This document shows, in pieces, positions 29,916 through 63,402 of a stretch of DNA of 64,000 bases; position 1 is the stretch's first letter, and each line of letters starts with the position of its first letter. This stretch comes from a bacterium (GTDB lineage Bacteria; Desulfobacterota; Deferrisomatia; Deferrisomatales; BM512). The stretch spans positions 1 to 64,000 of the forward strand of contig SCTA01000013.1 in assembly GCA_004322275.1 (NCBI GenBank), given 5' to 3'. The position numbers were made by a program, and so were the translations under genes. The notes under the pieces are model-generated. The model saw only the letters and a list, made by a program, of their open reading frames with translations, ran no database searches and was not told the DNA's origin.

Positions 29916-30980
29916 TTAAAACCAGTGCTTTTTGCGGAACCAAACCAGCATTCCGACTGATGTCGCGAGCATAACAACCCACACCAGCGGGTAGCCATAC
30001 TTCCATTCCAGTTCCGGCATATGCTCGAAGTTCATACCGTAAACACCGACGATGAAGGTCAGAGGGATGAAGATCGTGGCGATTATGGTCAGCACCTGCA
30101 TTATCTCGTTCATGCGGATGGAGAGGCTGGAAAGGTAGATGTCGGCGTAACCCGCGAGGGTCTCGCGCTGCACCTCCACGGTGTCCACCACCTGGAGCAC
30201 ATGGTCGTAAAGGTCGGTGAGGTACGGGTGGAGCCGCTGCGATACAAGTTCGCTCTCCGACCTCTGGAGGGTCTGTATCATCTCGCGCAGCGGCCAGGCC
30301 GCACGGCGTATCATCGACGAATCGCTCCGTATCCTGTGTATGTCGCCGAGGGTCTTTGAGTCGGGTTTCCTGAAAAGCTCGTCCTCCAGCGTTTCCATCT
30401 CGTCGGAAAGGCGCTCTATGACCAGAAAGTAATGGTCGACGATCATGTCCAGAAGCATGTGCATAAGAAAATCCGCCCCCTCGCGCCTCACCCTCCCCTG
30501 CCCCTGCCGTATCCTGTCGCGCACCGGCTCGAAGATGTCGCCCGGCCGCTCCTGAAAGGTGACGAGCCACCCGCGCCCCAGCAGCAGACTCATCTGCTCG
30601 AACTCGATTTCGTCCTTGCCGGGCAGTTTCTGGGCCATGCGGAGCACCGCGTAGAGGTAATCCCCGTGGAACTCCACCTTGGGCCGCTGGTGGGTGTTGG
30701 CGATATCCTCCAGCACCAGAGGATGCACGCAGAGCTTTTCGCCGATCTTCCTTATGACCTCGACCTCGTGGATGCCCGAGACATCCAGCCACGAAACCCC
30801 GGAGGGAGAAGGAAAGTCGCCCGGCAGTTCCGGGCCGGTGAAACACCTCTCCGAGTAGGACTTCTCTTCAAAATTGAAGATCGTTACGGAGACGTTCTCG
30901 GCCTTCTTCTCGCCCACATGCACAAGAGTGCCGGGGGGAAGTCCGAGCTTTTTCGAGCGTGGGGAAACCTGTTTGGCCAT
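29916..30980 (-). CDS. corA: CorA-type magnesium/cobalt transporter
   Basis: Pentameric inner-membrane channel for Mg2+ or Co2+. The 354-residue protein has a long cytoplasmic domain and two C-terminal membrane helices (about 295-315 and 328-347), with the selectivity signature YGMNF at the end of the first helix. The acidic HMPELEW loop follows, then a short basic tail. It stands alone; 29733-29915 and 30981-31158 flanking it contain no gene. Confidence 0.95.
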   Translation of the reverse strand: MAKQVSPRSKKLGLPPGTLVHVGEKKAENVSVTIFNFEEKSYSERCFTGPELPGDFPSPSGVSWLDVSGIHEVEVIRKIGEKLCVHPLVLEDIANTHQRPKVEFHGDYLYAVLRMAQKLPGKDEIEFEQMSLLLGRGWLVTFQERPGDIFEPVRDRIRQGQGRVRREGADFLMHMLLDMIVDHYFLVIERLSDEMETLEDELFRKPDSKTLGDIHRIRSDSSMIRRAAWPLREMIQTLQRSESELVSQRLHPYLTDLYDHVLQVVDTVEVQRETLAGYADIYLSSLSIRMNEIMQVLTIIATIFIPLTFIVGVYGMNFEHMPELEWKYGYPLVWVVMLATSVGMLVWFRKKHWF

Positions 30981-31158
30981 TGCTGATCCGCCTTTTAGAG
31001 TCGAGCTTTTTCGTCACCCTTAACTATAACAAAAGAAGCGCGGCGCAAACAGGAGCCAAAGAGTTTCTCTGAGCGAATGAAAAGTATTAGCGCTTTGAAA
31101 AACAATGCTCTAAGGTGATGTTAAATCAAAACACCCAGCCACGCAGGGAGGAAAGCAG

Positions 31159-31446
31159 ATGCTGCCGGAAACACAAAAGAAGGCTTTCGCCGAGTTCTAC
31201 AACGTCTCCCGCAACAACACGACACTCGACCCGAAGACGACCGTGCTCATCCACCTCGCCTCCGCGATGGCCTTCGGCTGCACTCCGTGAATGGAGCACT
31301 ATCTCGGCGTCGCCGGGAAAGAGGGAATCACGGCTGAGGAGATCGGCGCGGCGCAGTCGATAGTGATGGCGGTGGCCGCGGGCAGGGTCAACTCCCAGCT
31401 TCGCGAAGTCGAGGTGAAGATCAAAAAACAGCAGGGGGAAGGGTAA
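31159..31446 (+). CDS. AhpD/carboxymuconolactone decarboxylase-like selenoprotein (C-x-x-U)
   Basis: Reading through the UGA at 31288-31290 as selenocysteine gives a continuous 95-residue protein. The first 43 codons and the 51 after the UGA are in one frame and together form one AhpD-like domain (LDPKTTVLIHLASAMAFGC-TP-U-MEHYL, then GITAEEIGAAQSIVMAVAAG). The redox motif is C41-T-P-U44, the place where relatives have C-x-x-C. A hairpin with a G-starting loop lies 12 bases after the UGA, as in bacterial SECIS elements. The ribosome site GGGAGG is 7 bases before the ATG. A peroxidase/disulfide reductase role is inferred from the family. A small membrane protein gene follows 12 bp later. Confidence 0.88.
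31291..31323 (+). promoter_or_regulatory. Putative bacterial SECIS element
   Basis: Immediately after the in-frame UGA, arms CUCGGC (31303-31308) and GCCGGG (31312-31317) pair (one U-G) around a GUC loop, with weaker pairing below. The loop begins 18 bases after the UGA and its first base is G, matching the spacing and apical-G rule known for bacterial SECIS hairpins recognised by SelB. It lies within coding sequence, as expected in bacteria. Confidence 0.75.
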
Positions 31447-31458
31447 GCCGGATTATCA

Positions 31459-31728
31459 ATGGGCAGACTCACCAGACACGTCATCTTGCCTTTTATACCG
31501 GCCCTCGCCCTTGAAGCGCTCTGGTTCACACCGAAGGAGACCTTCGGCTGCGCCCAGCGCGGGCTCATGGCGCTCTTCGTCGTGCTCGCCGCGGCGGCGG
31601 GGGCTTTCTGGGCCATTTTCAAGGGAATGCGGGCAAAAAAAGGCGGCGGCTCCGACGCCAACTGGTGGCTGCTCACGGCAATCATCCTCACCCTGCCGCT
31701 GCTACTGCTCCTCGGGCCGCTGGGGTAA
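31459..31728 (+). CDS. Small hydrophobic membrane protein
   Basis: An 89-residue protein with about three hydrophobic segments (roughly 7-22, 36-54 and 68-87), a Lys/Gly-rich loop near 59-65, and no recognisable family. It starts 12 bp after the selenoprotein stop on the same strand and is probably cotranscribed. The ribosome binding site is weak. The function is unknown; it could be a membrane partner of the selenoprotein, but position is the only evidence. Confidence 0.6.
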   Translation: MGRLTRHVILPFIPALALEALWFTPKETFGCAQRGLMALFVVLAAAAGAFWAIFKGMRAKKGGGSDANWWLLTAIILTLPLLLLLGPLG

Positions 31729-31729
31729 G

Positions 31730-31963
31730 GCCGGGTAGGATGCGTTAGCGTAGCGTAACGCATCGATTGAAAGAGGGGGGATGACTCAATACCGAAGAGC
31801 TTATTGCGAGGGCGGGACCTACTTTTTTACGGTCGTTACGCAAAATCCATAAAGGAAGGTTGTATCCCTCCGAATGGTGCGACGGCGGTGACATGGATAG
31901 CATCGGTTGGGATTAACGCACGGAAATTAATGCGTTACGCTACGCTAACGCATCCTACACGGC
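31730..31963. mobile_element. Non-coding element with 29-bp perfect terminal inverted repeats (MITE-like)
   Basis: Positions 31735-31763 and 31930-31958 are exact reverse complements over 29 bases (outer end GTAGGATGCGTTAGCG...), and extend to 34 bases with one mismatch. Each arm is itself near-palindromic (TGCGTTA/TAACGCA). The interior ~165 bp has no convincing gene. No clear target duplication is visible. The arms resemble REP-like units at 1395 and 34388. From here to 32344 there is no supported gene. Confidence 0.65.
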
Positions 31964-62412: not shown

Positions 62413-63402
62413 TCAACCTCTGGTGAAAGCCCCGAAGTGGCGGGACTGGCCGCCGATGAGGGTGAAGTGGGGGGCGAAGCGGGATTCGGTCAGGATTCTG
62501 GCGGTGTTTCCGCCGATGCGAAGCGCCTTTCCGGTCTCGAAGAGGTTCTCTTCGTCGAGGGCGAAGCGGTTCGGGAAGCCCTCCACCGTGCCCTTGTAGA
62601 TTGCGGCCTGCCCGTAGTCCTCCTCCCCCTCTTCGAGGGAGCGGATGCGGAAGAGGCGGAAGGTGACGGCGCGGAAAGTCGCCCCGGAGAGCTTTTCGCA
62701 AAGAGAGGTGTCGGTGATTTCAAGGGGGAGGCTCACCACTATGCGCGGGTCGCGAAAACCCGCCGAGCGCACCAACCGGAGGAAATCTCCGAGGTAGACG
62801 GCCCCGCCGAGCTCTTCGCGCTTTAGCTCCTCGTCGCTCTCGACCTCTTTGGGTAGCCTCCGGTCGCAGTACACGTCGGAGAACTGGAACTCTCCGCCGC
62901 TCTTCAGCACCCGGAAGACCTCCCGAAGAACTTTTAGCTTGTCGCTCACGTGACCGAGCGCCCGGTTAGAGATTACCACGTCGAAATCCTCGTCGTAGAG
63001 ACCGGCGTCGGCCAGGGAGTCTATGCTGCCCTGACGGAAGGCGACGTTGGGCTCAATAAATCCGAAATTCTCCATTATGGTGTTTATGGCCTTGCGGGCG
63101 ACGGCGAGGGCGGCCTGCTCGGTATCGAGCCCCATGACGTACCCCTTCGGACCGGCGAGGGCGGCGCACAAAAAAACGTCGCGCCCGGTTCCGCACCCCA
63201 GATCCAGTATCCGCGAACCCCCGATAGCCTCCGGAATAGGGCTCCCGCAGCCCGAGAACCTTCCGGTCACCTCCGGGGTTATCCTTTCGAGTATCCCCGA
63301 GAGCCTCTCGCGGGAAACCTCGCAGATATCCTCCGCCACGGCGGCGGGACGAAAGGCCCTGCCGAAAGAGGTTCTGATAATGTCGATGGGTTTGTCCGTC
63401 AT
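62413..63402 (-). CDS. ArsM-like SAM methyltransferase lacking key cysteines
   Basis: A 329-residue class I methyltransferase with SAM motif RILDLGCGTGRDVF (~64-77) and the arsenite methyltransferase-like architecture: GCGSPIPEA before the SAM fold, YCDRRLPKEV, GGAVYLGDFLRL, and a C-terminal GNTARILTESRFAPHF domain. In ArsM enzymes arsenic is bound by cysteines in SNC, EC(L)SGA and near the C-terminus; here the positions read SNR, EELGGA, GGNT and FTRG. Only the cysteine in GCGSP remains. The substrate is therefore probably not inorganic arsenite, or binding differs. No ars genes are nearby. Confidence 0.8.
   Translation of the reverse strand: MTDKPIDIIRTSFGRAFRPAAVAEDICEVSRERLSGILERITPEVTGRFSGCGSPIPEAIGGSRILDLGCGTGRDVFLCAALAGPKGYVMGLDTEQAALAVARKAINTIMENFGFIEPNVAFRQGSIDSLADAGLYDEDFDVVISNRALGHVSDKLKVLREVFRVLKSGGEFQFSDVYCDRRLPKEVESDEELKREELGGAVYLGDFLRLVRSAGFRDPRIVVSLPLEITDTSLCEKLSGATFRAVTFRLFRIRSLEEGEEDYGQAAIYKGTVEGFPNRFALDEENLFETGKALRIGGNTARILTESRFAPHFTLIGGQSRHFGAFTRG

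What the first reader, a model, noticed from the sequence alone, without database searches (positions are those of the whole stretch)
31159..31446. Hidden selenoprotein: AhpD-like protein with a C-x-x-U redox motif
Seen: an in-frame UGA at codon 44 sits inside one continuous AhpD-like domain, exactly where the family has its second redox cysteine (C41-T-P-U44). The reading frame stays family-like on both sides, has a good ribosome site, and stops normally at 31444-31446. A hairpin with a G-initiated loop begins 12 bases after the UGA. Known: AhpD-like selenoproteins and selenocysteine replacing the second Cys of C-x-x-C occur in bacteria with selAB. Inference: the gene is functional and the host decodes UGA as selenocysteine. 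Standard gene callers would split or miss it.
Basis: partly seen in the sequence, partly recalled or inferred. Interest (0 to 1): 0.85.

Follow-up and report, generated by a model that had tools for sequence, protein, structure and literature searches.

The report
Small selenium-containing redox protein gene
A 95-residue bacterial gene that looks broken by a stop codon is almost certainly a real selenoprotein, because its relatives keep the same stop codon and the RNA hairpin that recodes it, but selenium proteins of this kind are already known.

Summary
Window 31159-31446 encodes a 95-aa carboxymuconolactone-decarboxylase (CMD, PF02627) protein if UGA at codon 44 is read as selenocysteine (Sec), giving C41-T-P-U44. 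Fifteen relatives (about 48-71% identical) have TGA at this codon; others have Cys. In all 16 TGA members a 7-bp hairpin starts 12 bases after the UGA, with an invariant G first in its loop. Its pairs covary and exceed what synonymous codon choice gives (109 of 112 pairs; null mean 77, maximum 89 in 5000). The genome carries selA, selB, a selD with its own in-frame UGA, and tRNA-Sec (UCA). Assembly error or pseudogene is excluded in practice; Sec insertion itself is not shown. The kind is known: CMD/AhpD-like CxxU selenoproteins have been catalogued since 2005. This subfamily scores below every curated NCBIfam cut-off and lacks AhpD's proton-relay Glu and His by position, so 'alkylhydroperoxidase' is not supported. 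New but modest: in three relatives the gene lies directly downstream of arsM, and the nearest named models are ArsM/methyltransferase fusions, suggesting a selenol/thiol reductase sometimes serving arsenic methylation. This genome has no arsM over the cut-off.

The parts
31146..31151 (+). ribosome-binding site GGGAGG, 7 nt before the ATG
   Evidence: sequence
31159..31446 (+). selenoprotein gene, 95 aa plus TAA stop; CMD (PF02627) domain at residues 8-74
   Evidence: 15 relatives with the same TGA
31279..31281 (+). codon of Cys41, partner residue of the C-x-P-U motif; invariant
31288..31290 (+). TGA codon 44, read as selenocysteine
   Evidence: TGA in all 16 members with the region intact, TGC/TGT in Cys forms
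31302..31318 (+). bacterial SECIS hairpin: 7-bp stem 31302-31308/31312-31318, loop GUC 31309-31311 whose first G is invariant
   Evidence: model constraints
31459..31728 (+). 89-aa hydrophobic ORF 12 nt downstream, possibly co-transcribed; not seen as a conserved neighbour in relatives
29916..30980 (-). divergent neighbour: CorA-like Mg2+ transporter (context only)
   Evidence: PF01544 E 1.6e-72

Best explanation
31159-31446 is a functional selenoprotein gene. SelB bound to the hairpin at 31302-31318 delivers Sec-tRNA(UCA) to UGA 31288-31290, giving a 95-aa all-helical CMD-fold protein with a C41-x-P-U44 redox pair. Inferred mechanism: U44, at the position of the attacking second cysteine in AhpD-type proteins, acts as the selenolate nucleophile on a disulfide, peroxide or oxidised metalloid substrate, and C41 resolves the selenenyl-sulfide, which cellular thiols then reduce. 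In some relatives it probably serves the arsenite methyltransferase ArsM; in this genome, which has no ArsM over the curated cut-off, the substrate is unknown. Shown by sequence: frame, conserved UGA, SECIS, machinery, family. Inferred: Sec insertion, catalysis, substrate.
For: Complete Sec machinery. TGA at the same codon in 16 of 16 members with the region intact; Cys in L073 (CYPC), L049/L076 (CPAC), L050/L077 (CRHC), L051 (CKHC) and Photobacterium L097 (CLPC). SECIS: 97.3% of cells paired, 5 of 7 pairs with changes on both sides, covariation above 500 of 500 shuffles and above every slid version; 109 of 112 pairs against a synonymous-codon null with mean 77 and maximum 89 of 5000. The genome's own SelD UGA is followed by the same kind of hairpin: 7 bp, 3-nt loop starting with G. 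CMD domain; confident all-helical model, pLDDT 91.9, nearest CMD-family structures 3bey, 1vke and 7y4r. arsM directly upstream in L015, L068 and L069.
Against: No protein or RNA data. The gene is absent from the four nearest relatives searched, so its distribution is patchy. No sigma-70-like promoter match. AhpD's relay Glu and His are missing by position, so peroxidase chemistry is doubtful. The arsM link is not general: only 3 of 16 loci, genome-level co-occurrence 7/13 against 108/382, one-sided p 0.05, and this genome has no arsM over cut-off. SelA occurs in 355 of 395 phylum genomes, so its presence alone is weak evidence.
Confidence: 0.93

Rival explanations
1. The gene is a decaying pseudogene or an assembly error: a TGC/TGT/TGG codon mutated or was misread to TGA.
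For: One base separates TGA from a Cys codon, and the gene is missing from the four nearest relatives.
Against: TGA is at the same codon in 15 further members from different genomes, the reading frame is family-like on both sides, and the hairpin covaries beyond synonymous expectation.
Confidence: 0.02
2. The UGA is a real stop, and the gene makes a short 43-aa peptide or two separate half-proteins.
For: Standard code; some leak termination is normal at Sec UGA codons (general knowledge).
Against: The second half has conserved protein-level sequence (M45, G63, A64, Q66, V69-V72 and others invariant in A1); Cys forms are uninterrupted.
Confidence: 0.03
3. The conserved UGA is decoded as another amino acid (for example Trp or Cys by reassignment or suppression) rather than Sec.
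For: Sequence alone cannot name the inserted residue.
Against: The aligned residue in homologues is Cys, the SECIS hairpin is present, the tRNA-Sec has anticodon UCA, and the genome's SelD has a UGA at its Sec position.
Confidence: 0.02
4. Functional rival: the protein is a dedicated reductase partner of arsenic methylation (ArsM) across the family, not a general thiol/selenol oxidoreductase.
For: arsM directly upstream in L015, L068 and L069, the last with ArsR and ACR3; weaker CMD relatives also lie near arsM in G107 and G130; closest named models are methyltransferase/AhpD fusions MduS and ArsM_AhpD_UU.
Against: Most loci, including this one, have no arsM neighbour; G000, G009, G011, G020 and G159 carry the gene without arsM over cut-off.
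Confidence: 0.25

Closest known systems
CMD domain-containing / 'AhpD-like 2' CxxU selenoproteins (PF02627; Sargasso Sea 2005 PMC1088965, GOS 2008 PMC2398784, reviews PMC9312934 and PMC13188914)
   Same: CMD domain, CxxU motif with Sec at the second position, Cys homologues known
   Different: Published example sequences (e.g. MBW1767730.1) are not held here, so sameness of subfamily could not be tested
MduS (NF045649) and ArsM_AhpD_UU (NF041537)
   Same: Best NCBIfam matches (50.2 and 42.2 bits), CMD-type domain with CxxU
   Different: Those are 338-345-position methyltransferase fusions with more than one Sec; this is a stand-alone 95-aa protein far below their cut-offs (380 and 510)
GSU3128 family (seleno)protein, NF041047 ('distant AhpD homolog')
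   Same: Small stand-alone CMD-type CxxU protein of related bacteria
   Different: 32.7 bits against a cut-off of 110; the GSU-like relative L028 keeps Glu at Cys-12 and His at +4, which this family lacks
AhpD alkylhydroperoxidase of Mycobacterium tuberculosis (1gu9, 1knc)
   Same: CMD fold and CxxC-type pair
   Different: Relay Glu and His not conserved; weak fold match and sequence below the AhpD core cut-off

Membership tests
Bacterial selenoprotein gene | In-frame UGA in a conserved frame, aligned with UGA or Cys in homologues | tested here: met
   16 of 16 UGA members, Cys in L073, L049, L050, L051, L097
Bacterial selenoprotein gene | bSECIS: 3-9 nt loop, 4-16 bp stem, G in first two loop bases, 16-37 nt from UGA to loop, MFE at most -7.5 | tested here: met
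   3-nt loop GUC, 7 bp, 18 nt, -11.0 kcal/mol; model from PMC13188914; covariation
Bacterial selenoprotein gene | Host has SelA, SelB, SelC, SelD | tested here: met
Bacterial selenoprotein gene | Selenium present in the protein | not testable with these tools
   needs 75Se labelling or mass spectrometry
CMD family PF02627 | Score over the curated cut-off | tested here: met
   38.2 bits, cut-off 23
AhpD alkylhydroperoxidase | CxxC (or CxxU) redox pair | tested here: met
   C41-x-P-U44
AhpD alkylhydroperoxidase | Relay Glu 12 residues before the first Cys and His 4 after the second | tested here: not met
   By position: L/V/R/I/T/F at -12, Y/C/L at +4 in 17 members; offsets from own knowledge of AhpD, not a structural superposition
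AhpD core TIGR00778 | Score over cut-off 27.8 | tested here: not met
   12.7 bits
GSU3128 family NF041047 | Score over cut-off 110 | tested here: not met
   32.7 bits
MduS NF045649 / ArsM_AhpD_UU NF041537 | Methyltransferase domain fused to the AhpD-type domain, score over cut-off | tested here: not met
   stand-alone gene, 50.2/380 and 42.2/510 bits
Published CMD-like CxxU selenoproteins (MBW1767730.1 and relatives) | Same subfamily by sequence | not testable with these tools
   the sequences are not held here; only Pfam family and motif could be compared

The most novel reading that the evidence does not exclude
A stand-alone Sec-dependent CMD reductase subfamily, not yet covered by curated models, is the reductase partner of arsenite methyltransferase in anaerobic bacteria, with MduS and ArsM_AhpD_UU as its fused versions; copies without arsM, as here, serve a related metalloid or thiol substrate.
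Probability: 0.22. Interest if true: 0.5.

Novelty: new member of a known kind. Interest (0 to 1): 0.36.

Why it matters
It is a clean example of a small selenoprotein gene that standard stop-codon rules hide, in a subfamily below every curated NCBIfam cut-off, so it is likely missed or split in many genomes. The arsM neighbourhood gives a testable lead to what the uncharacterised CMD-type CxxU selenoproteins do.

Tried and rejected
Conserved operon: clustering the neighbours of 19 loci besides the window gave no general partner, although it used greedy ORF picking that favours shadow ORFs. Selenium-locus link: a Cys form in Photobacterium lies after selA-selB, but a strong terminator-like hairpin (-23.2 kcal/mol) with a T run separates them, so I treat it as incidental. 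Viral copies: none found. A second selenoprotein suspected at G000:C41:38342-39010 ('1 TGA') was rejected: the TGA is the stop before the methyltransferase start. Genome-level SelA co-occurrence is uninformative because 355 of 395 genomes have it. The own-genome arsM-like gene at window 62707-63285 scores 125 of 263 bits and has no CMD domain. The tree resolves little (one starred branch), so the direction of Sec/Cys change was not decided.

Full report
Observation. Window 31159-31446 reads MLPETQ...FGCTPUMEHYLG...QQGEG with one in-frame TGA at 31288-31290 (codon 44) and a TAA stop at 31444-31446. GGGAGG at 31146-31151 lies 7 nt before the ATG. The translation matches Pfam CMD PF02627 at 38.2 bits against a cut-off of 23, over residues 8-74, so both sides of the TGA belong to one domain. 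With the standard code the ORF tool lists only an out-of-frame ORF at 31115-31363 here.

Machinery. The assembly (2.88 Mb, 45 contigs, listed as 100% complete) has SelA (E 6.6e-145), SelB (367.5 bits against 242.25), SelD (366.1 bits against 125, with one internal TGA in the context ASGUGAKI) and a tRNA-Sec over the gathering score with anticodon UCA. SelA is common in the phylum (355 of 395 genomes), so this is necessary rather than discriminating evidence.

Homologues. One scan of species genomes and profile searches of the class and phylum gave 15 further members with TGA at exactly this codon, the motif reading C-x-P-U. A closer Cys form is L073/L047 (CYPC, TGC), with more distant ones L049/L076 (CPAC), L050/L077 (CRHC), L051 (CKHC) and Photobacterium L097 (CLPC, TGT). 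Two copies were left out of the counts: the contig-edge copy L052, which is cut in front of the motif, and L019, whose match starts only after it. A recurring TGA against Cys cannot come from an assembly error or a lone pseudogene.

SECIS. In all 16 TGA members a 7-bp stem starts at the 12th base after the UGA, with a 3-nt loop whose first base is always G; three members have one mismatch in the stem. In the window the stem is 31302-31308/31312-31318 and the loop GUC is 31309-31311. The published bacterial model asks for a 3-9 nt loop, 4-16 bp, a G in the first two loop bases, 16-37 nt from UGA to loop and MFE at most -7.5 (PMC13188914); the window has 3 nt, 7 bp, G first, 18 nt and -11.0. 97.3% of cells pair, 5 of 7 pairs change on both sides, the covariation score is not reached in 500 shuffles, and sliding the partner destroys it. 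Because the region codes for protein, I also shuffled synonymous codons: 109 of 112 pairs form against a mean of 77 and a maximum of 89 in 5000 sets. The genome's own selD UGA is followed by the same kind of hairpin, and the Cys form L049 has only 4 of 7 pairs.

Structure and chemistry. The model is four helices at mean pLDDT 91.9. Nearest solved folds are CMD-family proteins 3bey, 1vke and 7y4r (RclX), with AhpD further down. By position the family lacks the Glu 12 residues before the first Cys and the His 4 after the second that form AhpD's proton relay (the offsets are from general knowledge of AhpD, not a superposition). Cys forms L073 and L097 lack them too, so this is a family trait and not a consequence of Sec. 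I therefore call it a CMD-fold selenol/thiol oxidoreductase, and do not file it as an alkylhydroperoxidase.

Context. In the window the gene stands between a divergent corA and an 89-aa hydrophobic ORF 12 nt downstream; neither is a conserved neighbour. In three relatives the gene is directly downstream of arsM on the same strand: L015 and L068 (HgcC-like AbrB protein, arsM, this gene; L015 continues with an ECF-type sigma gene and a second CMD gene with CQPC) and L069 (ArsR, arsM, this gene, ACR3, a second CMD gene with CIPC, ECF sigma factor). The closest named models are the methyltransferase/AhpD fusions MduS and ArsM_AhpD_UU. From the positions, weaker CMD relatives also lie close to arsM in G107 and G130. 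Genome-level co-occurrence with arsM is marginal (7 of 13 against 108 of 382, one-sided p 0.05), and this genome has no arsM over the cut-off. The arsenic link is a lead for part of the family.

Novelty. CMD domain-containing CxxU selenoproteins were reported from the Sargasso Sea (4 sequences, PMC1088965), as 'AhpD-like 2' PF02627 CxxU with 70 sequences in GOS (PMC2398784), and are listed in the 2026 review (PMC13188914). The gene is a new member of a known kind. What is added is a well-supported SECIS, the lack of a curated model that captures the subfamily, and the arsM neighbourhood.

Noticed in passing
window 31740-31763 (+) and 31930-31953 (-): Two exact inverted copies of a 24-nt palindromic repeat flank a remnant whose start, MTQYRRAYCEGGTYFFTVVTQNP (31781-31852), weakly matches REP-associated tyrosine transposase (NF047646, E 6.8e-4): a probable internally deleted REP/RAYT unit just downstream of the gene.
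   Followed up: partly
L097:14-3279 (Photobacterium sp. DA100, NZ_CP119424.1): A Cys form of the family (CLPC) follows selA and selB by 280 bp, with a terminator-like hairpin between; could be a relic of transfer with the Sec genes.
   Followed up: partly
G000:C25:46122-47045 (-), L091: This genome's selD is itself a selenoprotein gene (ASGUGAKI with hairpin), preceded by a YedF-like ORF (the YedF name is from my own reading of the sequence).
   Followed up: partly
window 62707-63285 (-): ArsM-like methyltransferase domain (125 bits against a cut-off of 263) in a 340-aa frame without a CMD domain.
   Followed up: partly
L015:155-454, L068:8277-8561, upstream of arsM in L079-L082: An AbrB-type protein matching the 'HgcAB-associated protein HgcC' model (119.2 bits, cut-off 70, for the L068 copy) sits directly upstream of arsM, which suggests that the name may not be tied to mercury methylation.
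   Followed up: no
phylum search, e.g. G367:C1:18297-19076, G138:C10:14843-15619: Several arsM genes over the cut-off carry one or two in-frame TGA codons, so Sec-containing ArsM looks common in this phylum.
   Followed up: no
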